Part shown: one piece after another, positions 21,259 to 41,160 of the stretch
Layout: each line of letters starts with the position of its first letter
Position numbering within the stretch: position 1 is the stretch's first letter
NCBI GenBank assembly: GCA_007695035.1
Contig: REEO01000075.1
Location: 1-64,000 of the forward strand
Source: Saprospirales bacterium
GTDB taxonomy: Bacteria > Bacteroidota > Bacteroidia > Chitinophagales > Saprospiraceae
DNA length: 64,000 nt
Reading direction: 5' to 3'
Notes under the pieces: model-generated
Database searches by the model: none
What the model was told of the DNA's origin: nothing
The model's input: only the letters and a program-made list of their open reading frames with translations
Translations under genes and position numbers: made by a program

Positions 21259-24172
21259 GGAATTGCATATCGATGGATTTGGCATTTTTCACGACCACCG
21301 CATCACCGGATTGAACAGCGGCATGGAGGTGCTTTATGGTGCCAATGAAGCAGGAAAATCTACCTTGCTGGATTTTATTCGAATGACGCTGATGGGATAC
21401 CCAAGACCCAATGATCAGCGAAGACCACCTTTGAAGGGCGGAAATCACGGGGGCAGTATTTTCTTTGAGGACAAGACTGGAAAAACCTGGGAAATTCGGA
21501 GGACAGGAACCAATCACAACGCCCCGCCCACACTTATTGATCAAACTACACTGGAAGAATTTCGAGACCAGGTACAGTTTGATAAGGTTGTTAGCAACGC
21601 CAACAGTGAAATTTTTGAAAACATCTACGCGATCGGACTGAGTGAGCTTTTTCAAATGGGAAGCATTGACAAATCCGGAATGAAAGATCGCATATACAGC
21701 CTCGGAACCGGAGTGGTTGGTCTGGATCTTCGCGCATTGGAATCCGAACTCACCAAAAAATCCAGAGACCTTTATATCCCAAGAGGCAGCACTCAAAGAA
21801 TTTCCAATTTGGTCAGTGATCTCAATGAATTGGAAGGGAAACTCCATCACATGGATGCCGGAGTAGAGCGGTACGATCAAATTCTCCATAAAGTTGGTGA
21901 TTTTAGAGAGAAAAGTGAGGAGGTATCAAATGAAATTCAGTGCATAGACAAGGAACTTGAACAACTCAAGGCGCGCAGTGATATCTATCAAAACTTTGTG
22001 GACCTTGAAGATGCGAGGAAAAAACTGGCTGAATATGTTGACTTTCAGGAAATGCACGATGAGGACGTCGAAAATATTCGCTCTATTCAACAAAGGCTTG
22101 ATGACAGAAAAAAACAACTCAGTGAGTCCCAAAAACAGTTGGATGAACTCCGGGATAGATTGGATAAGGTCAAAACTGATGAAAATCTGCTAGAATTTTT
22201 GCCCAAGAAGGGCTGGCTGGAGCGGGCAATACCAGAATATGAATCCAGAATGACTCAATCCCAAAGGGAGCAGGAACAAATTTCCCGGCTAAAGGAGGAG
22301 AGGGATTCACTTTTGAGTCGCCTTGGGAAAGGGTATTCATCTGATTTGTTAGCTCAATTCAACCAATTTGACGGTTTGAGAAACAAGGGGGAGGAGGTGT
22401 ACAAAAAGTTGGAAAGCCTGGATCGAAGTATTGCTCTAAAAAAGGAAAGACTTGAGGACAGGAATAGGGCAGTAAGGGAAATCCAGACCGCCGTGGAGCA
22501 ATTTGAACACCAACGGGATTCCGGGAACATTGCAACCGAACAGGATGCAGTAACCGGAAGGAAAAAATGGGCAGAGTTGGAGGTGAAATTTAATGAATTG
22601 ATAAGCGCGCCCACATCCCAAGTGGATTTGCCTACCTGGCTGCACTTTGGTGCGCTTGTCGTTGCTATTATTGCGGCTGTTGGGGCCGTTCTTTTGTGGG
22701 AAACTTACATGTGGTTTGGGATAATTGGCCTTCTCGGTGCTGTGGTAATTTCCGTGCTGATTTTAAGCAGTTGGAGAAGCGGAGGGAAAAGAAATGATAA
22801 ACCTGACGCAATTGAATTGCAGGCCAAAATCAAGGAATTGGAAGCGCAATTGAACTCCTATGAAAAAATTAGGGACGCCATTGAGGAAAAGGTCCGTGAA
22901 CGTGACAGGTTGGTATCGCTGAAAAGGGAGGAAGAAGACCAGGTTGCGCAAGAGGAAAAATCCAGGGAGGAATTGGAGCGTGACTGGTTTGAATTTATAA
23001 CTGAATTGGGTCTGCCAGCCGGGCTTAGACCTTCTGCAGCCGGGGACTTCTGCGAACGGGCGAAAAATTTTCAGGACCTGGAACGCAAGCAAAAAACCGC
23101 AGAATTGGCCAGGGGGGAATTGCAAAAAAAAATGGAGGGCTTCGAGCAGGAAATTCGTAAAATGATTTTAGCCGGGGATGGTGAATCCATTACCGAGGCA
23201 GCCAGTAGGCTTAGCAATCAGCTGGAAGAGCAGGAGAAGAAAAAGAATGAAAAGTCGAGCCTGGGCGAGCGATTGGAACGTGAGAACCACGATATGGAAA
23301 CCCTGGAAAAAGAAATTGATAGGCTGGAAGGGGAGGGGGATGCGCTGTATGGCAAATACGGCATCGGTTCCGCTGAGGAGTTCCCGGAATTCCTTAAAAA
23401 ACAAACTGAATACAGGGAGGCAGTGGACCAGAAAAATGAGGCGAGGCGCTTGATTGAAAGCCGCTGTGGAAAAAATCGATTTGACGGAGTGGTTCATGAC
23501 CTCAGAGGGTTGGACCCCCCTGAAATCAACCGACGAATCTCTGAATTGGAGGAAAGGAAAAAAGAGCTCGACCGCGATCGGGAAGGAATTAATCAGTCCA
23601 TTGGTAAGCTATCCGAGGATGCAAAGAAATTGATCGACTCCGAGGAGCAGGCCGGTTTGCTGGAAGAGCGGGAGGTCAAACGAGCTGCCCTCGCTGACGC
23701 TTACAGAGAGTGGATGTCTGTTCGCCTTGCAGAGCGGGTAATTTCCCACTGCAAGTTAAAGTACCAGGAAACCAGACAACCTGCTGTAATTCGACGTACA
23801 GCAGAGATTTTTTCAGCAATTACCTCGGGCCGGTACGGCAATATTCAGGTTTCGGTGGACGACGAGGCCCTGATTGTTTTTGGAAAAGGAGGTTCGCGCA
23901 AATCCGTTTTTGAATTGAGCCGGGGTACCAGGGAGCAACTCCTGCTGTCGCTCAGAATGGGGCTGATCGACCAGTATGAAGCGAGTGGGGCAGAACCCCT
24001 TCCTGTTGTACTGGACGATGTGTTGGTTAATTTTGATAAGAAGAGGGCCTCGGAGACAGCCCGCCAACTCACTTCTTTCGCCCAAAAACGCCAGGTTTTG
24101 TTATTCACCTGCCATAAATACATTGCGGAACTATTGGAGGCTGAGGGAGCCAGGGTGCGCACAGTTGATTAG
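21248..24172 (+). CDS. YhaN/SbcC-like SMC-type ATPase
   Basis: A 974-residue ATPase. Walker A is GANEAGKST (residues 31-39); near the C-terminus come the ABC signature-like FELSRGTREQLLLSLRMGL and Walker B PLPVVLDDVLVNF. Long coiled coils lie between (about 190-450 and 520-820). Two hydrophobic helices at about residues 464-510 (FGALVVAIIAAVGAVLLW; FGIIGLLGAVVISVLIL) sit in the middle, a feature of YhaN but not of SbcC or Rad50, suggesting membrane attachment. ATG 21248 is inside the end of yhaO. The pair would process DNA ends together; the cellular trigger is unknown. Confidence 0.88.
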   Translation: MIIKELHIDGFGIFHDHRITGLNSGMEVLYGANEAGKSTLLDFIRMTLMGYPRPNDQRRPPLKGGNHGGSIFFEDKTGKTWEIRRTGTNHNAPPTLIDQTTLEEFRDQVQFDKVVSNANSEIFENIYAIGLSELFQMGSIDKSGMKDRIYSLGTGVVGLDLRALESELTKKSRDLYIPRGSTQRISNLVSDLNELEGKLHHMDAGVERYDQILHKVGDFREKSEEVSNEIQCIDKELEQLKARSDIYQNFVDLEDARKKLAEYVDFQEMHDEDVENIRSIQQRLDDRKKQLSESQKQLDELRDRLDKVKTDENLLEFLPKKGWLERAIPEYESRMTQSQREQEQISRLKEERDSLLSRLGKGYSSDLLAQFNQFDGLRNKGEEVYKKLESLDRSIALKKERLEDRNRAVREIQTAVEQFEHQRDSGNIATEQDAVTGRKKWAELEVKFNELISAPTSQVDLPTWLHFGALVVAIIAAVGAVLLWETYMWFGIIGLLGAVVISVLILSSWRSGGKRNDKPDAIELQAKIKELEAQLNSYEKIRDAIEEKVRERDRLVSLKREEEDQVAQEEKSREELERDWFEFITELGLPAGLRPSAAGDFCERAKNFQDLERKQKTAELARGELQKKMEGFEQEIRKMILAGDGESITEAASRLSNQLEEQEKKKNEKSSLGERLERENHDMETLEKEIDRLEGEGDALYGKYGIGSAEEFPEFLKKQTEYREAVDQKNEARRLIESRCGKNRFDGVVHDLRGLDPPEINRRISELEERKKELDRDREGINQSIGKLSEDAKKLIDSEEQAGLLEEREVKRAALADAYREWMSVRLAERVISHCKLKYQETRQPAVIRRTAEIFSAITSGRYGNIQVSVDDEALIVFGKGGSRKSVFELSRGTREQLLLSLRMGLIDQYEASGAEPLPVVLDDVLVNFDKKRASETARQLTSFAQKRQVLLFTCHKYIAELLEAEGARVRTVD

Positions 24173-25608: not shown

Positions 25609-26313
25609 TCACGCTTGCAAATAAAACCCCCTTGTGATTTTTTTAAATTCTTCCGTGTATTGGCCTGCTTCATTTCGGATGGTCAAGCTTGTTTCTTCAA
25701 TTCCCGAATCGCCCTGACCGGATTTTTGATACTCGAGTAAAAGCCTGTGAGCGGGTGTGCCGGGTTGTGGATGCACCCTGCAAATACGCCTGCATCGAAG
25801 TTCCGGAAACTGATTGAGTGGCGGGGATTTCCGGTCGTTTTCACATTCTACAATCAATGAGACACTTGCTCCCGGATTCAGAAGAACTGGAGCGCGGTTT
25901 AGCAGTGATGTGTGAGAGAGTGGGCCGATCTGGCGCGCGGTGTGGGTTCCGCTTTTTCGACTGGGACTTCCCCTGAAAAAAGGCGGATTGCAAACGATGC
26001 GGTCCCATTTTTCCTCAAGTTCTTTAAAACATCCTTTTCTGACGCTCAGCCTATCCTTCCAGGGGCTGTTCTCAAAATTACTTTCTGCCAGCTTTACCGC
26101 TTCCTCGTTGATGTCAATTGCGTGTACCATTACCCCTGGATAGCGCTGGGCAATCATAAGAGAAAGAATACCGGTCCCTGTACCAATGTCCAGGGCGGTT
26201 CCCGACTCCCCGACTTCTGCCCAGACGCCCAAGAGTACCGCATCAGTAGTCAGCGGCATAGCCGATTCGGACTGCTGAAGGTAAAATTTCTGAAACTGGA
26301 AGACGCTACCCAT
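25609..26313 (-). CDS. trmN6: tRNA1(Val) (adenine37-N6)-methyltransferase
   Basis: A 234-residue class I SAM methyltransferase. The N-terminal MGSVFQFQKFYLQQSESAMP region (the FQFKxFxL-type start of the YfiC/TrmN6 family) is followed by the SAM motif ALDIGTGTGILSLMIA and the base-flipping catalytic motif NPPFF at about residue 115. It methylates A37 of tRNA1(Val) in characterised members. ATG 26313 is preferred over an in-frame TTG at 26346, because family members start just before the FQFK segment. It is downstream of the phospholipase-D-like gene by about 100 bases. Confidence 0.87.
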   Translation of the reverse strand: MGSVFQFQKFYLQQSESAMPLTTDAVLLGVWAEVGESGTALDIGTGTGILSLMIAQRYPGVMVHAIDINEEAVKLAESNFENSPWKDRLSVRKGCFKELEEKWDRIVCNPPFFRGSPSRKSGTHTARQIGPLSHTSLLNRAPVLLNPGASVSLIVECENDRKSPPLNQFPELRCRRICRVHPQPGTPAHRLLLEYQKSGQGDSGIEETSLTIRNEAGQYTEEFKKITRGFYLQA

Positions 26314-26410
26314 TTTGACGGTTGATATGGTTTTAAACTTTGCCAATCTCCGAATTAATCAATCCAGGAAACTTGTATGTTTTGTACCTGGAGAGATCTA
26401 CCTGCCCCCT

Positions 26411-28099
26411 TTAATTTTGAATTACTATTTGGATCGTCTGTGTTTGTCCGTTTGAATCAATGCGGAGAAAGTGGCTGCCGGTGGGCAGGTTGCTGAGCTG
26501 AAACACCCCACTGTTGGTCTGTCTGAAACCGGATTTAATAATTTTTCCGGAGCGGTCAAACACCATGAAAGTGTATGGTTGATCGCTAAACTCCTCATTG
26601 AATTCTACATGGGTGGTGGTTACGGAGGGATTGGGGAAAACGGAGAAAAAGCCGGATGATTTTCCAATGAGTTCGTAAGTGTTAACCATACATTCATCTG
26701 GTACATTTTCGCACCAACGCGCTTCGAATTCCTGCCTGAAAATATTGGCAATTTCCACACTGTGGAGGATCAGGGTGTTTTCATCGTTGTGATTGTTTGC
26801 GCGATTAGTCCAGTTGTGGGAGCCTGTGATTACCCTGGGTTGGGCGGAGCTGGATTCAGCATCAGCGTCAACAATGGCATATTTGTGGTGCAATTGCACA
26901 CCGTTGACCTGATCCTGGTGTACATTCATATTGTTGCTCTGTAGCTTTGGAAAACGGGTGCCCGTAGAAGTGACATCGTGGATCAATCCGCGCACATTCA
27001 GTCCCTGAAAATGTTTTGATATAAGGGTTTCAGCCAGGGGATTGAAGGTAAAAATTAAGAGTGCAAATGATATGCTCTCCTCGGCATCCTCAAGGGCATT
27101 GGAAATGTGCCAGGCTGTATTGTCTGATGGCGAAAAGTATATTTGGGTTGGAACATTGCCGATTTCCAAAAATTGCGGGGTATTAGAGACTTTGTTTTCT
27201 CCAAACCGGGAACTGGCATGGTTGGGTGTCTCCGTATTGCTTCCCCACATTTCTTCGAACTCCATCTCGTAAATCTTTGCCAACGATTGGTCTTGTATGA
27301 AAAGGGAGTTGTTGTTGTCGGTGGCAATTTGCTGGGTTGTCAGATTGGTGGAGCCTGTAAATACCCAGGAAATATTTTCGTGATCTGCATCTGCTATTAC
27401 AAATTTGTGGTGCATAATGCCATCGTTGTCATCGCGCTCCAACACCTCAAAAGGAAGTGAGCGGTTGAGGGCGGTGTTTGCGTTTTCTCCCTCCGCTATA
27501 TATCGCACTCTTACCCCTCTGTAATACGCTGCAATCAACGCATCCACTATCTCTGATCTGTTGTTGTTGTAGGCAGCCACATCGAGGGTGTGTTCTGCTT
27601 CATCAATCAGTTGCAACAACCTGTTTCGAAGGACTGTCCCCGAAGTGGAAACCGGCTCTGGGCCAGTAGATATACCTGTATTTACACTGCTGTTAAAATA
27701 TACAAGGATTTCTCCCGATGAGCGGGACCTGGTCACTATGGGCATATTGCGAAGCGTATCGCTTCTTTCATCTGTTGAAATGGCAAGTGATACCTCGTAT
27801 AGGGTTCCAGGCTCCAGTCCGGCTAACTCTATTTCAGCAGTTCGAATCCCTACCGGTTGGTCTTTCCATTCCGTCCGATTGCTTATTTTGTATCCCTCCA
27901 AAATTGCATTCGGTAGGTCTGTTTTCAACTGAATGGCATTTTCAGAAACATTTTTTATGTAAAAGCCATCGGCTGACTCGTGCAGTGGAATAGGAGCATG
28001 GTGTTGTGCGATTAAGCCTTCCGGAGAGGACTCGCAAAGGGCTAGAAAAAAAAGGGTAGCCAAAATGCTTTTCCCGGTGATTGTAAAAACTTTGTTCAT
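26411..28099 (-). CDS. T9SS-secreted phospholipase-D-fold protein
   Basis: A 562-residue exported protein. After the signal peptide comes a fibronectin-III-like segment (about residues 45-125), then two PLD half-sites, each with an intact HxK(x)4D motif: HHKFVIAD followed by FTGSTN, and HHKYAIVD followed by ITGSHNWTN. Two sites usually form one active centre that cleaves phosphodiesters, in lipids or nucleic acids. The last 80 residues (FSVFPNPSVTTTHVEF... to the C-terminus) are a type A T9SS sorting domain, so it is sent across the outer membrane and either released or anchored. It has its own promoter, and a terminator upstream isolates it from the DUF5689 gene. Confidence 0.88.
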   Translation of the reverse strand: MNKVFTITGKSILATLFFLALCESSPEGLIAQHHAPIPLHESADGFYIKNVSENAIQLKTDLPNAILEGYKISNRTEWKDQPVGIRTAEIELAGLEPGTLYEVSLAISTDERSDTLRNMPIVTRSRSSGEILVYFNSSVNTGISTGPEPVSTSGTVLRNRLLQLIDEAEHTLDVAAYNNNRSEIVDALIAAYYRGVRVRYIAEGENANTALNRSLPFEVLERDDNDGIMHHKFVIADADHENISWVFTGSTNLTTQQIATDNNNSLFIQDQSLAKIYEMEFEEMWGSNTETPNHASSRFGENKVSNTPQFLEIGNVPTQIYFSPSDNTAWHISNALEDAEESISFALLIFTFNPLAETLISKHFQGLNVRGLIHDVTSTGTRFPKLQSNNMNVHQDQVNGVQLHHKYAIVDADAESSSAQPRVITGSHNWTNRANNHNDENTLILHSVEIANIFRQEFEARWCENVPDECMVNTYELIGKSSGFFSVFPNPSVTTTHVEFNEEFSDQPYTFMVFDRSGKIIKSGFRQTNSGVFQLSNLPTGSHFLRIDSNGQTQTIQIVIQN

Positions 28100-28137
28100 T
28101 CAGTGAAAATTACGAACTGCATTATATAAAACTCTCC

Positions 28138-28169
28138 CAAAGGTACTATCAAAACCAGTGATTTGCAAA
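28138..28169 (-). promoter_or_regulatory. Promoter of the PLD-fold gene
   Basis: On the minus strand, TTTG (28169-28166), a 20-base spacer, then TACCTTTG (28145-28138) match the Bacteroidota -33/-7 pair closely. The -7 box is 39 bases before the ATG at 28099. Confidence 0.7.
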
Positions 28170-28238
28170 AAACGCTATTTATAGCCTGACATTGTTGGAG
28201 ACTGGAGTGTCATAAGACTCCAACAGGTACCTGACAGC

Positions 28239-28271
28239 AAAAAAGCAGGGCACAAATTGTTGCACCCTGCT
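28239..28271 (-). terminator. Rho-independent terminator after the DUF5689 gene
   Basis: Read on the minus strand, a 7-bp stem AGCAGGG/CCCTGCT (28271-28265 with 28250-28244) is followed directly by six T residues. It lies 31 bases after the stop of the DUF5689 gene and ends the receptor/lipoprotein transcript. Confidence 0.85.
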
Positions 28272-28301
28272 CCTGCTGTTTATTTTTCTATTGCATCCGG
28301 C

Positions 28302-30260
28302 TTAATCGGTAAAGATGCGGACGTTGTCAAGTCGGTAGGTGGTGGTCTCATCTTGAGGTGCAGATCCCTCATACACCCACGCAATATGGGCATTTCCGGG
28401 GAAGGCACTCAAATCGATGGTTCCAGAGCTGACAAACCCCCAGCGATCATCCTGGGGACCAGCAATTCTTGCATCCAGTTCAGTCCAGTCTGCGGCAGTG
28501 GGGTCATCTCCGTCAAAATTATTGGAGATATACACGGTGAGTCCGTCATGAACATGGAATCCCTGGGCAGACTCAAACTCGAGCTTTACTCCGTTTTCAA
28601 CTTCAAAGCCGGGGGTTATTAACCACATTTTGTTCGCAGCGTCGGCAGACTGAAATGAACTGGCCGTCCCAAATTGGTTATCCTGGAATCCCCCCATTTC
28701 CCAGGGGCGGGTTCCTGTTTCAATAATGTTGTACCATCCCGGAAGGTCAAGTGGCTCATCTTCTACTCCTTCCTGAAAATCCTCAAAGAGAATGGTCATC
28801 GGCTCGGTAAAATCACCATCTACATCATCCAGGTTTCTTATGCTCACCTGCCGTGACTCTTGAGTTCCTCCCACTGAAACGATTCCGGTTAGTGATACTT
28901 CATCGGAGGGGATGGTTTGGTTGGCAAATGTGGCCTGTGGTCTGGTAAAGTGATCGATGGTAGCGGTTCCGTCGTTGAGGGTGGTGGTAAATGCAAAATC
29001 CTGAATATCGCCATCTTTGGTAATGCTCACGTCGTGAATCCTCACCAGGGTGGCTTCGTAATCGCTGAAATTAGCCTGGAGTTCGCTTATAGTAAGTACA
29101 GTGGGTTCTACTTCATTGCCTTCAGAAAGCACCTCTGCAGCGAGCAGATCTACATTGTTTATCTGCAATAGCCCCTGAAACTGGGACAATTCCTGACCTG
29201 ATACGTCAATTTGCAACATCGCACCCATTGGGAAATTGTGATTTCCTGTGAAACGCACCATAATACCTCCGCTCTCATCCTGAATAAACATATTGCGCTC
29301 GGAAGTATTTAAGTGGTCTTTGTCTGAAATGACTACACCTTGAATAACTGAGTTGCCAGCCACTGAAGTCGGGCTGCCGGTAAATTGACCGCGGATGGAA
29401 GAAATGGGTGTAATTGTGGCATCGCAGCGCTCGTCTTCCATCATAACGTCTTCGATCTCTCGAATCATGAGTTGTTTCACATCCCCAAAAACGGTGTAGA
29501 TGCCCACTACTTCACCACTTCCCTCGGGAAGTTGAGTCGTTGCAAAATCAGCAAACCCGCTGGTCCTGACTATGATAGGAGCATCTCCTTCACAGGAGGT
29601 GAGATCGTGGTTGATGGTTTGTCTGATCTCATTGCCCTCGTCGTCAATGGTATTTATGGCAAACGTTTCACCGAGGTCTCCGGCTCGGAATTGCACATTT
29701 TCCAACCGGATTACGGTATTGATATCATCCTCGGTGAGTTGATCCACTCTCGTGGTATTGATGTCGTAATCCTGATCCCATTTTCCTCTAAGGATAAATT
29801 TATCTGCAAGTGGCAGCGGAATACCGTCCATGCCTGTAATATTGCCAGAAGCATCTCTTTCCACACCGCCTCCTAGTTGGAGGGTGCCGTTAAAGTCGCT
29901 GATGTAGAGGTCCCTTGCCCGGATAAATAACCTCCGTCCTATGGGGTAATTGTTGTGCAAATCGGTAAAATTAAAGCGTATTTGGATGCCTCCGGTCTCA
30001 TCCTGAAGAACAAGGTTCCGGAAAAAGTTTCCCGAACGGTCATCTGCAACCACGATGGCTGAGAAAATCAGGTCTTCTTCAATTTGCACGTAATTTCCCG
30101 GCTGGTAGAAAGCCTTGATGTCAGCTATGGTCGCATTTACCTCCACATTGGGATCGGTTCCCTCAGCCGGTGGCTCGTCAAAGTCTTCCTTTACACAGGC
30201 AGTGAGTACTAAGATAAACGCAGTGAATAAGAGTGATAATTTTAAGTTGATGGTTTTCAT
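28302..30260 (-). CDS. Surface-type lipoprotein with two DUF5689 domains and a choice-of-anchor J domain
   Basis: A 652-residue lipoprotein: lipobox LTAC with Cys22, then VKEDFDE. A Lys followed by acidic residues just after the Cys resembles the surface-export signal of Bacteroidota lipoproteins. Two OB-fold-like DUF5689 repeats follow (about residues 45-215 and 285-455; FFRNLVLQDETGGIQIRF and NMFIQDESGGIMVRF mark them). The final 160 residues (FEDFQEGVEDEPLDLPGW, ...RLDNVRIFTD) match a choice-of-anchor J/MAM-like fold. DUF5689 proteins are usually found next to TonB-dependent receptors, as here, 93 bases downstream of one, and probably act as its surface partner. The ligand is unknown. Confidence 0.88.
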   Translation of the reverse strand: MKTINLKLSLLFTAFILVLTACVKEDFDEPPAEGTDPNVEVNATIADIKAFYQPGNYVQIEEDLIFSAIVVADDRSGNFFRNLVLQDETGGIQIRFNFTDLHNNYPIGRRLFIRARDLYISDFNGTLQLGGGVERDASGNITGMDGIPLPLADKFILRGKWDQDYDINTTRVDQLTEDDINTVIRLENVQFRAGDLGETFAINTIDDEGNEIRQTINHDLTSCEGDAPIIVRTSGFADFATTQLPEGSGEVVGIYTVFGDVKQLMIREIEDVMMEDERCDATITPISSIRGQFTGSPTSVAGNSVIQGVVISDKDHLNTSERNMFIQDESGGIMVRFTGNHNFPMGAMLQIDVSGQELSQFQGLLQINNVDLLAAEVLSEGNEVEPTVLTISELQANFSDYEATLVRIHDVSITKDGDIQDFAFTTTLNDGTATIDHFTRPQATFANQTIPSDEVSLTGIVSVGGTQESRQVSIRNLDDVDGDFTEPMTILFEDFQEGVEDEPLDLPGWYNIIETGTRPWEMGGFQDNQFGTASSFQSADAANKMWLITPGFEVENGVKLEFESAQGFHVHDGLTVYISNNFDGDDPTAADWTELDARIAGPQDDRWGFVSSGTIDLSAFPGNAHIAWVYEGSAPQDETTTYRLDNVRIFTD

Positions 30261-30353
30261 CTGATTGTAACATTTTGCTTTGTTAACCGCCGCCGCATAA
30301 TTTTTGGCTGGCAGCTTTTAATGTAATTTTTGTCTAAACGCTTTCTGTATGCT

Positions 30354-33125
30354 TTAAAATCTATACGCTAAGCTGGCGAAGAAATTGATCCCCTGAGCGT
30401 AAAAGTACCTGCTTGGATGGGTGTCAGGGTCTCTGTCCTGAAAGTTGTACCTTCGCTGTTCAAATCCTCCTGTTCTTATGTCTTTTGTATTGAGCAGATT
30501 GTTGATTCCAACATTCAGATAAATAAACTGACCCCGGGCAATTCTCCAGGACTTTCCTCCAAATACATTGACCATAACAGCCGATTCTGTGCTTTCCTGA
30601 CGGTGAATTCTCTCCCATTGCTCAGACCCTTTTTCAACTAAATCAAAGGCGACTGCTCTTCTGCGATCAGGATTGAAGTCGATGTACAGGTCGTCGAAGT
30701 AACTGACATCCATATTGATGAACCAGTAGTTGGGTGAGTTGTAACTAATCCCAAGGGATAGGGCGGTCTGCGGCGTACCAGAAACCAAAAAGCCCTTGGT
30801 GTAAATGGTCTCATCTTCAAACAAGAATTCCTCCGTTCGGTCCTGTACCTGCGAAGCTTTGGGATTGGAAGTGTGTCGGTAAAATCCGAGGGCTGCCACA
30901 CCGCTTACTGACAGGGTGGGACTGACCTTGACTTCCACGGCGGCTTCTATTCCCTGATGAGTGGTGTTCACATCCTCCAGGAAGTAAAAACCGAATGCCC
31001 GCTCAATATCATTGTAAAACGCAATCAGTTCTGTAATGTCACTAAATTCCGTGTAATAGCCCGTCAATCGGCCTCTCACAAAAGGAGTTCTGATCTGGTA
31101 ACCACCCTCAAGTGACATAATAGTTTCTTCTGTCATTTTGGGGTTCAAGCGGTGACTGGTTCGCGGAGATAAAAAGGCATTTCGCGCCTGAGGAGCTCGC
31201 GTCTGATACGACACATTCCCATACAGGTATTGCCTTCCTGAAATTTTAAAAGTAGCTCCGGCCTTGGTGGAGTAGTTGGTGAAATCAGTTTTTTCAGAAT
31301 CACCGAGAGAGTTGTCGGGGAAATGGCCATTTTGCATATATCCCGTTCTCCAAAAATTGGTGTAGGTCAATTGTGCGCCGGCAAAGAAATAAAACCTTTG
31401 AAGGTCAATTTCTGTCTGGGCCCAGGCATTGGCGCGCTCGACGTTAATGTCATAGTGATATCCGAAAACATCTCCCTCGGTGACTAATCTATTTGGGTTT
31501 TGAAGGTCTGACTGAAGTCTGAGTTGACCAAGTGCTGCGACATCCCGCTCTGCAAACCGATCGATGTCCAGGTAAAAGTCGCCACCTAACAGGTCACTAA
31601 CTTTTTTATAGCTTTCGTTTGTAAGCCTTTGATAGCCGATGCCGCCGGTTAGCTTGATGGTGGGTGAAATTACAGAATTGATGGTACTGTTGAAAGACAG
31701 AACGGTAGGGTCAAATCTCCGCTGCTCGACAATGTACTTGCTGCGATTTCCGGTGATGTCATTTCCCTCTATGCCATCTACATCCCGGATTGTGGCCTGA
31801 CTTCTGCGGTTGACGTAGTAAAAATCGTCCCAGTTTAGTTGGCGAACTTCCGGCTCGTTTTTCCATCTATCTGCAATCGCATCGGCCAGTCCCGGATCGT
31901 TGGTGTAGCTCGGCAAGTAGCGATAGTAGTCAGGCCTGGGGTCTCTTGCATTGTTCCAGTCAAGAGCTGTGGTGCCATACATCCCCGTCTGGAAAGAGAC
32001 TGCTGTGGTGATATTAGTTTGGTTGATTATTTCCCAGTCGTGCCTCAGTATTACGGTAGGTCTATGAGATCTTGCGACACGGGAATTCCGTTTTTCGCCA
32101 TTCTGAAACCCCCAAAAGGAGTTGTAGAAGTTATCACCACTCAGGTCATAAGCTTCCTGGGTAGCTGGTCCCGACCGCCCTCTTTTTGACTGTGCACCAA
32201 AAAAGGTTAGATTGATGGAGTGGCCGTCGCCAAACAACTTGTCGGCCGAAATGAAGTAACTCCATGCGTCGTAAAAAGTCCCATCCTGAAAGCCCTCCTG
32301 GGCCCATCTTCTCGATGCAGAAACCGAAAGTGCCCACTCACCAGGCATTAAACCTGTGCTGTGGGTTGCCATCACCCGGTGGTTGTAACTTCTATTCGAA
32401 GCTGCATATCCTATGCGGGTTTGTTGCCACTGTTGCAGGGCCCTGGTGTCGATGCTTGTGCCGCCCCCAATGTCAGTGAATGCAAATTCAGTGGGTTCCA
32501 GGCCTACTGAACTCGTTCTGGATCGCAGCACATCGTTCAAGCCGCCCCAATGCGCCCAGATGATATTGCCACTTTCCAGGTCGTTCATGGGGATGCCGTT
32601 GAGCATCATGGTGGAATATTGAGCGTCGTAACCCCTTACCCTGAACCTTCTCTGTCCAAAGGCAAAACCCGCCCTGGCCTGAAATAGATCGCGAGAGGCA
32701 GAAAGCATTTGAGAGTAGTCCTGTACTTCAATGTCGGCACTCTCAAAGTCCGATTCGTCAAGCTCAATTACCGGCAATTCTCTTCTGAAGTCCAGGTCGT
32801 CCATTCTGACGTCCACTTCAATAGTGCCAAGGTCTAGCAGATCGCCTTCTGCAATTTCAATCGCCTGTTCGTAAATTTGGTTCTCCCGGCTGCTGATCAC
32901 CAGGTGGTAGCTTCCCGGTTCGATGTTTTCCAGCAGAAACCTGCCCCTGGTGGAGGTGGTGGTTTGATGCACTGTCCCTTCCAAAAACACCTCCAGCCCA
33001 GGAAGTTTTTGCTCTGTGTTGTCCTCCTCAACTACGCCGGTTATACCGCCTGATTGAGCGGAAGCCATGGAAGTGAAGAGAATGAGAGTAAGGCCGAGGG
33101 CCATTGGTCTCCATATATTTATCAT
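30354..33125 (-). CDS. TonB-dependent receptor with carboxypeptidase-regulatory-like N-terminal domain
   Basis: A 923-residue outer-membrane receptor. Signal peptide ending SMASAQ; carboxypeptidase regulatory-like beta domain at about residues 25-105 (GITGVVEEDNTEQKLPGLEV); plug at about 125-235 (RRFRVRGYDAQYSTMMLNGIPMNDLE); 22-strand-type barrel to the terminal aromatic residue (FFASLAYRF). It imports a substrate too large for porins, driven by TonB. It is unlike typical SusC proteins, and no SusD is present; the DUF5689 lipoprotein takes that position. Gene order receptor, DUF5689 lipoprotein, with a secreted EEP-fold enzyme divergent, suggests uptake of a phosphate-containing product. Confidence 0.92.
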   Translation of the reverse strand: MINIWRPMALGLTLILFTSMASAQSGGITGVVEEDNTEQKLPGLEVFLEGTVHQTTTSTRGRFLLENIEPGSYHLVISSRENQIYEQAIEIAEGDLLDLGTIEVDVRMDDLDFRRELPVIELDESDFESADIEVQDYSQMLSASRDLFQARAGFAFGQRRFRVRGYDAQYSTMMLNGIPMNDLESGNIIWAHWGGLNDVLRSRTSSVGLEPTEFAFTDIGGGTSIDTRALQQWQQTRIGYAASNRSYNHRVMATHSTGLMPGEWALSVSASRRWAQEGFQDGTFYDAWSYFISADKLFGDGHSINLTFFGAQSKRGRSGPATQEAYDLSGDNFYNSFWGFQNGEKRNSRVARSHRPTVILRHDWEIINQTNITTAVSFQTGMYGTTALDWNNARDPRPDYYRYLPSYTNDPGLADAIADRWKNEPEVRQLNWDDFYYVNRRSQATIRDVDGIEGNDITGNRSKYIVEQRRFDPTVLSFNSTINSVISPTIKLTGGIGYQRLTNESYKKVSDLLGGDFYLDIDRFAERDVAALGQLRLQSDLQNPNRLVTEGDVFGYHYDINVERANAWAQTEIDLQRFYFFAGAQLTYTNFWRTGYMQNGHFPDNSLGDSEKTDFTNYSTKAGATFKISGRQYLYGNVSYQTRAPQARNAFLSPRTSHRLNPKMTEETIMSLEGGYQIRTPFVRGRLTGYYTEFSDITELIAFYNDIERAFGFYFLEDVNTTHQGIEAAVEVKVSPTLSVSGVAALGFYRHTSNPKASQVQDRTEEFLFEDETIYTKGFLVSGTPQTALSLGISYNSPNYWFINMDVSYFDDLYIDFNPDRRRAVAFDLVEKGSEQWERIHRQESTESAVMVNVFGGKSWRIARGQFIYLNVGINNLLNTKDIRTGGFEQRRYNFQDRDPDTHPSRYFYAQGINFFASLAYRF

Positions 33126-33249
33126 ACAAATAATTTTATCAAGTTTGTTTTGCTGCCTTTTTCAATACTGAATCATCTCTCCGCTCCCCATACACTCCAC
33201 TTCCTGGTTCGTTACAGACTAAATTACAGCACATTATACATTTATCATG

Positions 33250-33278
33250 CAAATGTAATCAATTCTGAGAATTTCCAA
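33250..33278 (-). promoter_or_regulatory. Promoter of the TonB receptor operon
   Basis: On the minus strand, TTG (33278-33276), 18 bases, then TACATTTG (33257-33250) fit the -33/-7 pattern. The -7 box is 125 bases before the receptor ATG. Confidence 0.5.
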
Positions 33279-33665
33279 TTGATTTTTTGCAAACAGCTAC
33301 TGGGAATTTCGATGGATTTGGAATCAAATACGCACGGCCACGGGTTCTACAAATGTGAACCAATGCGCGACTCCTCACTCGGAACCTGGATTATTGGGGA
33401 TAATACGCAGGACCGTGCGTATCTAAAAATACTGGTATTAAATCATATCCGATTGCCCCCCAAAGCCTTGGGGGTGGGTCATTTCTAGACTTTATACTTT
33501 TAAAACTTTCAACTTGTAGTTTTGGAATAAGCCAGCTTGAAATTAACGAAAAGATAATTCCCTGCCGGGGTGGCCTGGAGTGATTCGCTGCGGAAAAGAA
33601 TCCATGTAATACAGATGATCTTTTATCGGTATAATATAAAAAGTCGGGACCAGATTGTAGCCGTT

Positions 33666-33700
33666 TTTGGAGACAGACAATAATTTTTGGATTATCTTTG
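33666..33700 (+). promoter_or_regulatory. Promoter of the EEP-fold enzyme
   Basis: TTTG (33666-33669), 23 bases, then TATCTTTG (33693-33700) match the Bacteroidota promoter; the -7 box lies 30 bases before the ATG at 33730. Confidence 0.6.
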
Positions 33701-33729
33701 GGGTTCTTTGATAAATAAATACTCGTTCA

Positions 33730-34797
33730 ATGATATTTAGCAGCCTTATTAAGCGATTGCTTCCGTTGGCACTAATCGCAACCATGATTCTGGGCTCGGT
33801 TCAGTTAACTGCACAGCGGCAACAGTTTGAACTCGCTTGTATTGCCTTTTATAATGTGGAGAACCTTTTTGACACCATCAATGAGCCTGGGAAAATGGAT
33901 ATCGACTATACCCCGGAGGGCAGGTATTTGTGGGATACGGAAAAGTATTTGGACAAGCTCGACAAATTGGCCTGGGTGTTGAAGAGGCTCGGAACTGATA
34001 AGAGTCCAGATGGAGCTGCTGTTATTGGCCTCGCTGAGGTTGAGAATCGCCGGGTTTTGGAAGACCTGGCTGCTCATGAAGATATCAGGGACAGGAATTA
34101 TCAGGTAGTACACTACGAGTCACCGGATTTTCGGGGTATTGACAATGCGCTGTTCTACAATCCAGATTACTTTGAATACATATCATCCCGACCCCTGCCT
34201 TTTGAAATCGAGCGACCGGACGGCAGCATTGAAAAAAACCGGGACGTCTTGCTGGTGACCGGCAAATTAATGGGAGAGAAAATACACGTCATGGTGAACC
34301 ACTGGCCCTCCAGAAGGGGAGGTGAGGCCGCTACTCGCTACAAGAGAAATCGCGGGGCACAAGTCAACCGCGCCATAGTGGACAGCCTGAAAGCGGAAGA
34401 CCCTATGGCCAAAATTATTGTAATGGGGGACTTTAACGATGATCCTGTCAATGAGAGCATCAAAAAATACATCAACGCAGTTGGTGACCGGGATGCGATG
34501 GAACCCGAAAATATGTACAACCCCTTTTACGATGCTTTCAGGAGAGGACTGGGTACAAATGCCTGGCGCGACTCATGGAGTTTGTTTGATCAGATAATAG
34601 TCTCCTACGGCCTGGTGCATGAACAGGGAGACGGTTGGAGGTATTTCAGGTCTGAAATTTGGAATCACCGACAATTGGTTCAGCGGACGGGTCGGTTCAA
34701 GGGATATCCCTACAGGAGTTTTGCGGGTGGTCAGTATATTGGCGGTTACAGCGATCACTTTCCGGTATTTATATACCTGGTGCGTCCCGTTCAGTAA
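33730..34797 (+). CDS. Exported endonuclease/exonuclease/phosphatase-fold enzyme
   Basis: A 355-residue protein with a signal peptide ending VQLTAQ. EEP-fold catalytic motifs are in order: IAFYNVENLFDT (Asn42, Glu44), GLAEVENRRVL (about residue 106), VNHWPSRRGG (about 185), VMGDFNDDP (about 235) and YSDHFPVF at the end. It is complete. The family hydrolyses phosphodiester or phosphomonoester bonds in DNA, RNA, or lipid headgroups; nothing in the sequence fixes which. It is divergent from a TonB receptor and DUF5689 lipoprotein, a combination I regard as one functional unit, acting in the periplasm or outside the cell. Confidence 0.9.
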   Translation: MIFSSLIKRLLPLALIATMILGSVQLTAQRQQFELACIAFYNVENLFDTINEPGKMDIDYTPEGRYLWDTEKYLDKLDKLAWVLKRLGTDKSPDGAAVIGLAEVENRRVLEDLAAHEDIRDRNYQVVHYESPDFRGIDNALFYNPDYFEYISSRPLPFEIERPDGSIEKNRDVLLVTGKLMGEKIHVMVNHWPSRRGGEAATRYKRNRGAQVNRAIVDSLKAEDPMAKIIVMGDFNDDPVNESIKKYINAVGDRDAMEPENMYNPFYDAFRRGLGTNAWRDSWSLFDQIIVSYGLVHEQGDGWRYFRSEIWNHRQLVQRTGRFKGYPYRSFAGGQYIGGYSDHFPVFIYLVRPVQ

Positions 34798-34863
34798 AAG
34801 TTGGAGTGGGATTTACGCTTGGTGAATCCTTCTTTATTTTCCTCTTCCACCGGAACATTTTCT

Positions 34864-34871
34864 TACTTTTG
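34864..34871 (+). promoter_or_regulatory. Bacteroidota-type -7 element before the PIF1-like helicase
   Basis: TACTTTTG matches TAnnTTTG, 71 bases before the ATG at 34943. The -33 element is not clear. Confidence 0.4.
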
Positions 34872-34942
34872 CCCGATTGACAGATGGTTCTGCGAGTTGA
34901 TTAATCCTCCCGTACCTCGATTTCTCATTAAAACAGGCTATT

Positions 34943-36247
34943 ATGGATTCCGCCGGTTTTGAACCTGTAAGAGTAACCACTGAATTTGATCAGGCCATGG
35001 AATTGATTTCTAATTCCGGGAATGATCCTGTCTTTATTACAGGAAGTGCCGGCACCGGGAAATCCACCCTTCTAAAACTTTTTACCGATTACACCGACCG
35101 GAAAATGGTTTGCCTGGCTCCCACAGGAGTTGCTGCCCTTCACGCCGGTGGACAGACGATCCACTCCTTTTTCGGCTTCCCACCGAGCTTACTGGTACCC
35201 GGGGAGTTTAAGATCTGGAAAAACAAGCGAATAATCCGAAAACTGGACCTCATTGTAATCGACGAGATATCCATGGTCCGGGCGGATTTGATGGATGCAA
35301 TGGATCACTTTTTGAAGGTGGTGAGAAAATCCGAATCTCACTTTGGCGGGGTGAAAATGGTCTTTTTTGGAGACCTTTACCAGTTGCCCCCTATCGTAAG
35401 TGGGGTCGCTGCCGCCAATTACTTCAATACCGAGTATGAGAGTCCGTATTTTTTCTCTGCCCGCGTTTTTGAAAGAGAATGCAGGCTCCATCAATTTGAA
35501 CTGACCGAAGTATTCAGGCAAAAGGACCGCAAACTCGTGGAATTGCTCGACCGCATTCGTACCAATACCGCAGATTTTGATGACCTCGAATTTATAAACA
35601 GCCGGGTTGACCCCTCCTTTGACAGTCCGGATTGGTGCGTCACCCTCGCCGCCCGGAATGCCACGGTCAATGCCATCAACCAGCTCAGGCTTTCTCAACT
35701 CGAAGGAGATCCAGTTCTTTACAATGCAAAAGTGAAGGGCAAATTCCCGCCCAATGCCTTTCCGGCTGACAGTGTGCTCTCTTTGAAATCCGGTGCACAG
35801 GTAATATTTTTGAGGAATTCCCCCGACCATCAATTTGTAAATGGTACCCTCGGTAGGGTAGTGGAGGTGCACGAGGATCATATATTGGTGAGGTTAAAAG
35901 ATGGCTTGCACGAGGACAAGGTGATTGAGGTGGAGCCATTTAAGTGGGACATGACTGAGTACGAGTACGACAGCAAGGAGAATAAGCTGAAAACCCGAAC
36001 CAAAGGCGAGTTTGTACAGTATCCGCTCAAACTGGCGTGGGCACTCACCATCCACAAAGCCCAGGGCAAAACCTTCGAAAATGTGTTTATTGACCTGTCG
36101 GGAGGAGGAGCTTTTGAAACGGGTCAGGCCTACGTGGCATTGAGTCGATGTAAAACCCTTGAAGGCATTGTGCTCAAGCGGGATATAAAACCTTCGGATA
36201 TAAAAATTGACCCTCTAATTGCGGAATTTTTGGGATATGCTGTATAA
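34943..36247 (+). CDS. PIF1-like superfamily 1 helicase
   Basis: A 434-residue ATPase. Walker A GSAGTGKST is at residues 34-42, followed by CLAPTGVAALHAGGQTIHSFF (motif Ia region), LDLIVIDEISMVRAD (Walker B, about 100) and FGDLYQLPPI. The C-terminal half has QVIFLRNSP, LAWALTIHKAQGKTFENVFID and YVALSRC, all typical of PIF1/RecD-like helicases. It unwinds DNA 5' to 3' in known members, helping at G-quadruplexes or stalled forks. It ends without the C-terminal HRDC-type extension some Bacteroidota homologues have. A very small membrane protein gene follows after 37 bases. Confidence 0.9.
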   Translation: MDSAGFEPVRVTTEFDQAMELISNSGNDPVFITGSAGTGKSTLLKLFTDYTDRKMVCLAPTGVAALHAGGQTIHSFFGFPPSLLVPGEFKIWKNKRIIRKLDLIVIDEISMVRADLMDAMDHFLKVVRKSESHFGGVKMVFFGDLYQLPPIVSGVAAANYFNTEYESPYFFSARVFERECRLHQFELTEVFRQKDRKLVELLDRIRTNTADFDDLEFINSRVDPSFDSPDWCVTLAARNATVNAINQLRLSQLEGDPVLYNAKVKGKFPPNAFPADSVLSLKSGAQVIFLRNSPDHQFVNGTLGRVVEVHEDHILVRLKDGLHEDKVIEVEPFKWDMTEYEYDSKENKLKTRTKGEFVQYPLKLAWALTIHKAQGKTFENVFIDLSGGGAFETGQAYVALSRCKTLEGIVLKRDIKPSDIKIDPLIAEFLGYAV

Positions 36248-39822: not shown

Positions 39823-41160
39823 CTACTCCACCACCTCCAGTTCATTTGTTTTCCTAATAAACCAGAATCCATCATACCGGTGTGCAATTCTGGTGGGGAC
39901 GTAGTTTCCAGATTCCTGTCTTGGGTTATAGACAACTCCGATGGCCCTGTGTCCGATGTATTCGCGCAGGGGCTGAAACTGTCGATCCTCTGAGTCGAAG
40001 ACCATGGCAAACTCCTCTTTCGGCATTTGGCTGAGTAGGTGTTCGTATGTTCCAGAGGGCGATTCAGGGACATTCATTATTTGCATGGGGGAACCCCATT
40101 CTGATCCAGCATTAACGCGTCCGGTAAAAGTTCCAAACCCCAGAATAAAAACGTTTTCCTCACCCAGTTCTTCCCTGCTCAATTGTCCAATATTCACTTG
40201 TCCCTGCATGCGCATTATGGTTGTGTGCGAGGCGTCCCCCACATGGGTGTTGTGCGCCCATACAATTCCCCTTGAGTCGGGTCCGTATTTTTCTAGCAAT
40301 CGCTGTGTGGTTTGCCAAAAGTGATTGACGCGGGCGTTCCAGGATCCACCTCTGTCGTTCGCTGCCAATCTCACGTGTTTTTCGGAGTTTTTGAGTACCA
40401 GGCCCTTTTGATGTAGCCTGAAAAACTCGTAATCAGCCCAATTTCCTGCTGAATGGGCCCCGGATTCCAGTTTTTCCAATAGGGCTGCGAGATCTTCTTC
40501 GCAAGAGGAAGTCATTCCCCTGAAAACCATGCCTGCATAATCCCACTCATTGCCTTTGAATTCTTCGTAGCAAGCGAGCAATTCAGATACTTCAGAGGCG
40601 AGATCAGCTTGGAATCGCTCCACCAACAGATGCAATTTTTCCAGTGCTTCCCACTGGCCGTAAACATCGATGCCGTAGAAACCAACTTTTTCATCTTCAG
40701 GTCGGTCTTCATTGAATTCCCTCATCCATTCGGCCAGTTTTTCGACCTCGGTATTTCCCCACATCCACTCAGGCCATCTGTCAAAAGCGTGCAAGACTTC
40801 CGCTGCCGATCCGGCTGCACCCGGAAGGTCTTTTATGTATTTGTTGAGTTGAAAAATAGCGGCCCAATCTCCCTCTACTGCGATAAAATTAAATCCCTTC
40901 TCCTCTATCAGTTTTTTGGACAACATTGCGCGTCTGTTGTAGAATTCGGCTGTTCCGTGGCTTGCCTCTCCCATCAGGACGAGTCGCTTGCCGTCTGTTT
41001 GCCCAACTATCTTTTCGGCTGCCGCTCCATTGTCCGCGGCTGTTATTTTTTCCACCAGGTGTTCATAGAGTGGCATTTGACCCTCTTCAATATCCGGTTG
41101 GTGCTGTGCCTGGCAGCTGGTCCAGAGAAAAATGGTCAAAATTAATGCGATTGGCTTCAT
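39823..41160 (-). CDS. Erythromycin-esterase-family protein, exported
   Basis: A 445-residue protein with a signal sequence (lipobox-like LWTSC, Cys16). The EreA/EreB-type active-site segments are present: LVLMGEASHGTAEFYNRRAML, FIAVEGDWAAIF, WAHNTHVGDAS and FGTFTGRVNAGSEWG. EreA-type enzymes hydrolyse macrolide lactones, but most family members lie in non-resistant bacteria and have other, unknown substrates, so a resistance function is not implied. It may be lipid-anchored in the envelope. No operon partner is visible. Confidence 0.85.
   Translation of the reverse strand: MKPIALILTIFLWTSCQAQHQPDIEEGQMPLYEHLVEKITAADNGAAAEKIVGQTDGKRLVLMGEASHGTAEFYNRRAMLSKKLIEEKGFNFIAVEGDWAAIFQLNKYIKDLPGAAGSAAEVLHAFDRWPEWMWGNTEVEKLAEWMREFNEDRPEDEKVGFYGIDVYGQWEALEKLHLLVERFQADLASEVSELLACYEEFKGNEWDYAGMVFRGMTSSCEEDLAALLEKLESGAHSAGNWADYEFFRLHQKGLVLKNSEKHVRLAANDRGGSWNARVNHFWQTTQRLLEKYGPDSRGIVWAHNTHVGDASHTTIMRMQGQVNIGQLSREELGEENVFILGFGTFTGRVNAGSEWGSPMQIMNVPESPSGTYEHLLSQMPKEEFAMVFDSEDRQFQPLREYIGHRAIGVVYNPRQESGNYVPTRIAHRYDGFWFIRKTNELEVVE

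What the first reader, a model, noticed from the sequence alone, without database searches (positions are those of the whole stretch)
26411..34797. Candidate surface phosphodiester-capture system: PLD-fold and EEP-fold secreted enzymes around a TonB receptor and DUF5689 lipoprotein
Two different exported phosphodiester-cleaving folds flank a TonB receptor and a lipoprotein that replaces SusD. Established knowledge: PLD-fold and EEP-fold proteins cleave phosphodiesters, DUF5689 has an OB-like fold, and DUF5689 genes often sit next to TonB receptors. Inference: the set cuts extracellular nucleic acid or glycerophospholipid outside the cell and imports a nucleotide, sugar-phosphate or phosphate product. 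The substrate is unknown, and the PLD gene has a separate promoter, so its membership is less sure than that of the other three.
Basis: partly seen in the sequence, partly recalled or inferred. Interest (0 to 1): 0.65.

Follow-up and report, generated by a model that had tools for sequence, protein, structure and literature searches.

The report
Outer-membrane DNA-import locus with nucleases
These four genes look like a version of the outer-membrane machine that lets some Bacteroidota bacteria pull in DNA without a known pilus, with two probable DNA-cutting enzymes attached, rather than a general phosphate-scavenging system.

Summary
In 149 class genomes (the window's included) the strong receptor and full-length DUF5689 occur in the same 29 genomes, within 5 kb in 28. 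EEP is in all 29 (55 of the other 120) and within 10 kb in 22. PLD is occasional: 8 of 61 full loci, the window included.

The interpretation needs changing. The receptor/DUF5689 pair corresponds to RA0C_RS04915/RS04920, essential for natural transformation in Riemerella anatipestifer (PMC8459023). EEP sits at +8, the RS04910 slot.

A sister receptor clade carries either a PLD protein, often fused to DUF5689, or Endonuclease I, pointing to nucleic acid as the PLD substrate.

Best model: lipoprotein and receptor take DNA across the outer membrane, PLD trims it outside, EEP cuts it in the periplasm. DNA binding, catalysis and transformation were not shown here. The window's DUF5689 protein is very acidic, against simple DNA binding. 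Nutritional use of DNA remains possible.

The parts
26411..28099 (-). Secreted PLD-family enzyme: two PLDc_2 stretches with two HxK motifs (HHKFVIAD, HHKYAIVD) and a C-terminal T9SS sorting tail; probable surface nuclease, accessory
   Evidence: only copy of its PLDc part found in the genome
28234..28279 (-). Probable intrinsic terminator separating the DUF5689 gene from the PLD gene
   Evidence: -29.3 kcal/mol, z -3.92; 1 of 200 shuffles folds as well; sequence. Not in the list of the simple scan
28302..30260 (-). DUF5689 lipoprotein: lipobox LTAC followed by V-KED (export-type motif, recalled), two DUF5689 stretches, DUF5017-like/choice-of-anchor J C terminus; the partner that sits where SusD would; probable receptor lid or DNA-handling subunit
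   Evidence: AlphaFold model pLDDT 92.2, pTM 0.55
30354..33125 (-). TonB-type outer-membrane receptor with N-terminal CarboxypepD_reg domain; proposed DNA channel, counterpart of RA0C_RS04915
   Evidence: Plug domain only weakly recognised (17 bits, cut-off 23.9)
33126..33729 (.). Intergenic region between the divergent receptor and EEP genes; promoters of both expected here, none identified with confidence
   Evidence: 17 promoter-like hits in 26000-35200 against a shuffle mean of 13.2, sd 3.8
33730..34797 (+). EEP-fold phosphodiesterase (PF19580) with Sec-type N terminus only and an intact DNase I-type active site; probable periplasmic nuclease, counterpart of the RA0C_RS04910 slot

Best explanation
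The locus is a DNA-import module of the outer membrane, of the kind essential for natural transformation in Riemerella anatipestifer, in a Saprospiraceae-type bacterium in whose genome no secretin was found. Proposed mechanism: (1) the T9SS-secreted PLD enzyme nicks or shortens extracellular DNA (inferred; accessory). (2) The surface DUF5689 lipoprotein, acting as SusD does for SusC, presents DNA to or caps the receptor (inferred). (3) The CarboxypepD_reg/TonB-type receptor passes DNA through the outer membrane with TonB energy (inferred here; the counterpart pair is genetically required in R. anatipestifer). (4) The periplasmic EEP enzyme cuts the incoming DNA (inferred; it would fill the nuclease step that the published model leaves unassigned). 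(5) ComEC passes a strand to the cytoplasm (comEC and dprA are present in this genome). The DNA may serve recombination, nutrition or both.
For: Phylogenetic profile: receptor over 700 bits and DUF5689 of 85 bits or more occur in the same 29 of 149 genomes; within 5 kb in 28; EEP in 29 of 29 against 55 of 120, within 10 kb in 22 of 29. Loci chosen by receptor alone: DUF5689 within 3 kb in 106 of 109, EEP in 47 of 61.

That matches RS04870 recA, RS04895 ComEC, RS04915 and RS04920 by count. Its lipoprotein scores 599 bits against the 475 cut-off of the R. anatipestifer-named family M949_1556; its receptor has pfam13620, the only domain the paper names for RS04915, and no Plug hit, and is 31% identical to the window's. 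Of 60 genomes of that family, 20 have the lipoprotein at E 1e-100 or better (14 over the cut-off); the receptor lies beside it in 20 of 20, EEP in 19. PMC8459023: deleting either gene abolishes transformation.

Nucleic-acid substrate: sister loci carry a lamin-tail protein with a PLD protein (7 loci) or Endonuclease I (4 loci) (one side of a branch), and one Endonuclease I-DUF5689 fusion sits in a locus of the window's kind.

Own genome: no secretin; comEC and dprA present.
Against: The window's DUF5689 protein is very acidic (pI 4.1, net -72; median pI 4.6 in 125 relatives), which does not suit plain DNA binding. Identity is only 29-31% across that distance, and the window lipoprotein fails the M949_1556 cut-off. 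comEC is in 144 of 149 and HHH_3 in 149 of 149 genomes, so having them says little. RS04910 is not among the genes listed from the transposon screen. F. johnsoniae has the homologues but was not competent in the tested conditions, and has partial type IV pilus homologues including PilQ (PMC8459023, PMC7965970). EEP is not within 10 kb in 7 of 29 class genomes, and its presence near the DUF5689-type receptors needs 19 changes on the tree. The EEP fold does not tell nuclease from sugar phosphatase.
Confidence: 0.7

Rival explanations
1. Nutritional phosphodiester scavenging: both enzymes digest extracellular nucleic acid and the receptor imports small products for phosphorus, nitrogen or carbon.
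For: Two phosphodiesterase families in one locus. F. johnsoniae induces two fn3/LTD/Endonuclease I nucleases, and weakly an EEP protein, under phosphate depletion (PMC8115612, passages). Bacteroidota are named as likely DNA degraders in sediments (PMC8289736, passages).
Against: The counterpart receptor pair is essential for transformation, which needs DNA long enough to recombine. Those Pi-induced nucleases are listed as orphan genes. Removing phosphate lowered transformation in R. anatipestifer (PMC8383284). EEP is predicted periplasmic.
Confidence: 0.17
2. The receptor pair is needed for transformation only indirectly, for example by importing a nutrient or signal that induces competence, and EEP processes that ligand.
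For: Peptone, phosphate and iron all change transformation in R. anatipestifer, and the effect of one TonB was ascribed to iron (PMC8383284). The EEP fold also matches a Bacteroides mannosyl-6-phosphatase (4c1r, Z 23.3, tied with DNA enzymes). The DUF5689 protein is acidic.
Against: The deletions give complete loss (below detection), not reduction. Nucleases recur in related loci, fused to DUF5689 or exchanged for Endonuclease I.
Confidence: 0.09
3. Phospholipid or glycerophosphodiester capture: PLD and EEP act as phospholipase and sphingomyelinase-like enzymes and the receptor imports head groups.
For: The nearest solved relatives of the PLD enzyme by sequence are mitochondrial cardiolipin hydrolases, 6 of the 7 listed; human neutral sphingomyelinase is among EEP fold matches (Z 21.7).
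Against: Sister loci carry Endonuclease I where others carry PLD; the other PLD sequence matches include Nuc endonuclease and nuclease NucT, the latter far below its cut-off.
Confidence: 0.04

Closest known systems
RA0C_RS04915/RS04920 natural-transformation pair of Riemerella anatipestifer (PMC8459023)
   Same: Same order (receptor, then DUF5689 + DUF5017/choice-of-anchor J protein) and same domains; an EEP gene occupies the RS04910 slot in L253
   Different: 31% receptor identity to L253; the window lipoprotein has two DUF5689 stretches (652 aa against 467 in L253) and a T9SS PLD gene follows; different bacterial family; transformation not tested in the window's organism
SusCD glycan importers
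   Same: TonB-type receptor with CarboxypepD_reg extension plus a lipoprotein directly downstream
   Different: Partner is DUF5689, not SusD; probable nucleases in place of glycoside hydrolases
F. johnsoniae phosphate-utilisation (Pus) clusters (PMC8115612, passages)
   Same: TonB-type receptors with phosphodiesterases
   Different: Pus clusters have SusCD-like complexes and are induced by phosphate depletion; no such evidence here
EndA-type surface nuclease step of streptococcal transformation (recalled)
   Same: A dedicated nuclease linked to DNA uptake
   Different: EEP fold, periplasmic by prediction, unrelated family; role unproven

Membership tests
R. anatipestifer-type transformation receptor pair | Outer-membrane receptor of the RS04915 family with pfam13620 | tested here: met
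   PF13620 37.7 bits, cut-off 32.3; 31% identity over 910 columns to the L253 receptor, which sits in the published gene order. The RS04915 sequence itself was not available
R. anatipestifer-type transformation receptor pair | Adjacent DUF5689 protein with DUF5017/choice-of-anchor J end | tested here: met
   DUF5689 294.5 bits, choice_anch_J 70.4 bits over cut-off 30; DUF5017 16.7 bits, below its cut-off of 28.8
R. anatipestifer-type transformation receptor pair | comEC and dprA in the genome | tested here: met
   not discriminating, comEC is in 144 of 149 genomes
R. anatipestifer-type transformation receptor pair | No type IV pilus uptake machine | tested here: inconclusive
   No secretin PF00263 in the own genome, 0 of 1, assembly 96.6% complete; other pilus genes not searched
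R. anatipestifer-type transformation receptor pair | Required for natural transformation | not testable with these tools
   needs a deletion and a DNA-uptake assay
NCBIfam M949_1556 lipoprotein subfamily | Passes the subfamily cut-off | tested here: not met
   201.9 bits against 475, so homologous but outside that subfamily; L253 and G059 pass it
TonB-dependent receptor | Plug domain PF07715 | tested here: inconclusive
   17 bits, cut-off 23.9
SusCD system | SusD-family lipoprotein | tested here: not met
   Partner has DUF5689 and no SusD match
PLD-fold nuclease (Nuc/NucT) | HKD catalytic motifs | tested here: met
   Two HxK motifs read in the sequence; PF00614 over its cut-off once
PLD-fold nuclease (Nuc/NucT) | Passes the NucT family cut-off | tested here: not met
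   43.6 bits against 297
DNase I-like EEP enzyme | Conserved catalytic N, E, H, D-x-N, D-H | tested here: met
   N42, E105, H191, D234, N236, D342, H343 invariant in 33 sequences; the naming of the catalytic set is recalled
DNase I-like EEP enzyme | Nuclease rather than other phosphoesterase | tested here: inconclusive
   TDP2, Nocturnin, Bt3783 phosphatase and DNase I lie at Z 21.6-23.8; ExeM/NucH DNase model 27.7 bits, cut-off 300
T9SS cargo | C-terminal sorting domain | tested here: met
   PLD: TIGR04183 42.5 bits over cut-off 23. EEP has no match

The most novel reading that the evidence does not exclude
Across Bacteroidota, cells without an uptake pilus import DNA through a dedicated TonB-type receptor with a DUF5689 lid, and the unassigned strand-processing nuclease is the divergent EEP gene. 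Two architectures exist: one with EEP, receptor and DUF5689, the other with a lamin-tail protein, receptor and a T9SS nuclease (PLD, often fused to DUF5689, or Endonuclease I). This would be a phylum-wide DNA-uptake machine unlike any pilus-based one.
Probability: 0.45. Interest if true: 0.82.

Novelty: new variant of a known kind. Interest (0 to 1): 0.62.

Why it matters
How Bacteroidota without type IV pili bring DNA through the outer membrane is open. The 2021 screen named the receptor pair but left the nuclease step unidentified (it mentions ComEC as a possibility) and reported the receptor only in Flavobacteriaceae in one passage, while calling the four unknown genes widespread in Bacteroidetes in another. 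The locus family is seen here in records titled Saprospiraceae, Chitinophagaceae, Bacteroidales and Crocinitomix and carries a conserved EEP gene. That gives a specific, testable candidate for the missing nuclease and a possible marker for which environmental Bacteroidota can take up DNA, relevant to gene transfer and to recycling of extracellular DNA.

Tried and rejected
Presence or absence of comEC and of HHH_3 as a competence test: uninformative, 144 and 149 of 149 genomes. Viral contigs: no match. PDB sequence search with receptor profile, DUF5689 and EEP: no match at E 0.001, 1 and 0.001.

Fold search: the top Foldseek match of the DUF5689 model is a HIN-domain-dsDNA complex (5z7d, E 4e-8, TM 0.20/0.28, rmsd 16.5). 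It is kept only as a hint: OB folds are common, the acidic charge argues the other way, and the VIA list covers only the C-terminal part, residues 485-652. The EEP fold does not fix the substrate.

A first PLD profile was contaminated by DUF5689 and T9SS tails and was replaced by a domain-only profile. DUF1343 (PF07075), another gene of the published essential set, is present in the own genome; its spread was not measured. P-values ignore shared ancestry and its chance rates use rough copy numbers; they are not leaned on. Rows dropped before counts: 9 of the 38 genomes that matched the receptor profile at 1e-60 were left out because their matches are weaker (at most about 395 bits); none of the 9 has a DUF5689 match of 85 bits or more. 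In one search, three duplicate receptors were dropped, and receptors of 400 bits or less.

My first count of lipobox-like motifs in EEP relatives (3 of 87) included rows whose N terminus the script could not read; the recount is 5 of 77 readable.

Not-in-print statements rest on searches of the held open-access library only. Papers: PMC8459023 abstract, passages, whole Results and Discussion; PMC8383284, PMC8115612, PMC8289736, PMC12566107 and PMC7965970 passages only; other papers only as search listings.
Full report
What is there. The window holds, on the minus strand, a TonB-type receptor (30354-33125), a DUF5689 lipoprotein (28302-30260) and a PLD-family enzyme (26411-28099), and on the plus strand a divergent EEP enzyme (33730-34797). 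The DUF5689 protein has two DUF5689 stretches and a choice-of-anchor J end. The PLD enzyme carries a T9SS sorting tail; its sequence relatives in the PDB are cardiolipin hydrolases and the Nuc endonuclease, and nuclease NucT matches below its cut-off. EEP has a Sec-type N terminus. Among 87 EEP relatives near these receptors, 5 of the 77 with a readable N terminus show a lipobox-like motif, and none of 87 has more than 60 residues after the SDH motif, so there is no room for a T9SS tail. The periplasm is its likely place. A strong hairpin with a U run follows the DUF5689 stop codon, so PLD is probably its own transcription unit. The window lies in a 3.35-Mb assembly. A same-family genome (G175) has a contig of the same length as a record titled Saprospiraceae, and their receptors were flagged as duplicates, so the host is taken to be of that family (inference).

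In a class sample of 149 genomes, 38 match the receptor profile at 1e-60. The receptor exceeds 700 bits in 29 of them, the window's genome included, and DUF5689 reaches at least 85 bits in exactly the same 29. The two lie within 5 kb in 28; the exception is G113, where they are on different contigs. EEP (PF19580) is in 29 of 29 of these against 55 of the other 120, and within 10 kb in 22 of 29. In 122 distinct receptor loci gathered by receptor similarity alone, DUF5689 lies within 3 kb in 106 of the 109 with enough sequence, EEP lies in 47 of the 61 with both flanks, and a PLD gene in 8 of 61, the window included. The PLD part is found once in the window's genome; the other six hits match only the T9SS tail. 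8 of 61 is therefore above a rough chance estimate, though these genomes are related. EEP is a frequent core member and PLD an optional one. On a tree of 146 receptors the DUF5689 partner needs 8 changes, EEP 19 among the DUF5689-type loci, and PLD or Endonuclease I 17, so accessory genes come and go.

Sister loci suggest what the nucleases are for. A second receptor group, 21-28% identical to the window's where compared by blastp, forms one side of a branch with full local support (12 rows). Of these 12 loci, 7 have a lamin-tail protein and a PLD protein, 4 a lamin-tail protein and Endonuclease I, and 1 the lamin-tail protein alone. The PLD protein lies directly after the receptor in 5 of 7 (upstream, beyond the lamin-tail gene, in L055 and L057), and Endonuclease I directly after it in 3 of 4 (757 bases away in L140). 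A DUF5689 part is recognised in 5 of the 7 PLD proteins and in none of the 4 Endonuclease I proteins. The 7 PLD proteins have 723-749 residues; T9SS tails were confirmed by Pfam in the three of them that were scanned (L052, L056, L070) and in all 4 Endonuclease I proteins. In the main group, L182 has an Endonuclease I-DUF5689 fusion directly after the DUF5689 gene, and L209 a DUF5689-PLD fusion in the same spot. Exchange of PLD for a DNA/RNA endonuclease, and fusion of both to DUF5689, point to nucleic acid.

The transformation link. A literature search for DUF5689 returned one paper, a transposon screen for natural transformation in R. anatipestifer (PMC8459023; Results and Discussion read). 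Markerless deletion of RS04915 (predicted outer-membrane, CarboxypepD_reg) or of RS04920 (DUF5689, DUF5017, choice-of-anchor J) brought transformation below detection. The authors speculated that DNA binds RS04920 and passes RS04915, and left the nuclease that makes single strands unidentified, with ComEC mentioned as a possibility. They state in one place that the four unknown genes are widespread in Bacteroidetes and in another that the receptor was found only in Flavobacteriaceae.

I could not fetch those proteins by name. The NCBIfam family named after the locus M949_1556, which is an R. anatipestifer CH3 gene, is of this kind: a class-sample genome (G059) has a member at 753 bits, cut-off 475, beside the receptor and EEP. 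In 60 genomes of its family, 20 have a match at E 1e-100 or better, 14 of them over the cut-off; all 20 have the receptor next to it and 19 have EEP. One of them, L253, lies in a single 2.16-Mb contig and reads recA, dinB-type, sdhB, sdhA, sdhC-type, comEC, small ORF, carboxyltransferase, EEP, receptor, DUF5689 lipoprotein. Counting one locus tag per gene from RS04870 (recA), comEC falls on RS04895, the receptor on RS04915 and the lipoprotein on RS04920, all as published, which puts EEP at RS04910. comEC was found within the fetched stretch in only this one of the 20 loci; in a second genome of the same genus (G188) it lies about 12 kb upstream of the receptor (L267); one stretch (L261) holds only 2.3 kb upstream. 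The gene order is therefore fairly specific.

The same pair in the window is distant: 31% identity for the receptor over 910 columns, and against G059 29% for the receptor, 26% for the lipoprotein and 36% for EEP. The lipoprotein does not pass the M949_1556 cut-off (201.9 against 475). It belongs to the same wider family, not the same subfamily.

Mechanism, with status. Shown by sequence: the gene content, the conserved association, the export signals and the intact catalytic motifs. Shown by others in a distant relative: the receptor and lipoprotein are essential for transformation; tonB mutants also transform less, one of them ascribed to iron (PMC8383284, passages). Inferred: PLD shortens DNA at the surface; the lipoprotein caps the receptor as SusD caps SusC; DNA crosses through the receptor; EEP cuts it in the periplasm; ComEC takes over. 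The own genome has comEC, dprA and a DUF1343 gene, and no secretin. comEC is nearly universal in the class and carries little weight.

Against. The window's DUF5689 protein has pI 4.1 and net charge -72, and 125 relatives have a median pI of 4.6; the L253 relative has 5.2, while its receptor and EEP are basic (8.7 and 9.1). A simple DNA-binding lid is therefore doubtful, and metal-mediated binding or a purely structural role is possible. The Foldseek match to a HIN-domain-dsDNA complex is a hint only. The EEP fold is equally near DNA enzymes and a sugar phosphatase. RS04910 is not among the genes listed from the 3000-mutant screen. F. johnsoniae, with the homologues, was not competent under the tested conditions and was reported to have some pilus homologues, PilQ among them (PMC7965970, passages), so 'pilus-less' does not hold for every carrier. 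F. johnsoniae induces lamin-tail/Endonuclease I nucleases when phosphate is short (PMC8115612, passages), so a nutritional role of related nucleases is real, although those genes are listed as orphan.

Verdict. The nutrient-phosphodiester reading is replaced by DNA import, probability about 0.7, with transformation and nutrition both open as the purpose. Part of this is known for one genus; the breadth, the conserved EEP gene and the nuclease-swapping architecture were not found in print in searches.

Noticed in passing
window 34943-36247 (+): PIF1-like helicase gene directly after EEP; it keeps this place in same-family loci L036, L038, L039, L040, L045, L046 and L069, and lies about 1.9 kb away in L042. 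It also lies beside a sister-type receptor locus in L052. No hit in L101-L140; L141-L220 were not tested.
   Followed up: partly
window 19963-24172 (+): Calcineurin-like phosphoesterase followed by a 991-aa AAA/SMC-like ATPase with overlapping reading frames, resembling an SbcD/SbcC-type exonuclease pair (resemblance recalled; domains).
   Followed up: no
G000:C20 (open frames of 2244 and 1208 aa) and G000:C87 (1046 aa): Weak DUF5689 matches in very large proteins elsewhere in the genome; function unknown.
   Followed up: no
L114, L119, L121, L175, L183, L190: Receptor loci with two DUF5689 lipoprotein genes in tandem, as if the lid were duplicated.
   Followed up: no
L048 2643-10895 (EEP, receptor, DUF5017-type protein, DUF5689 protein): An extra DUF5017-type gene between receptor and DUF5689, the arrangement PMC8459023 reports for Flavobacterium columnare.
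   Followed up: partly
window 39823-41160 (-): Erythromycin-esterase family protein (PF05139, 316 bits) with a lipobox-like N terminus, unrelated to the finding.
   Followed up: no
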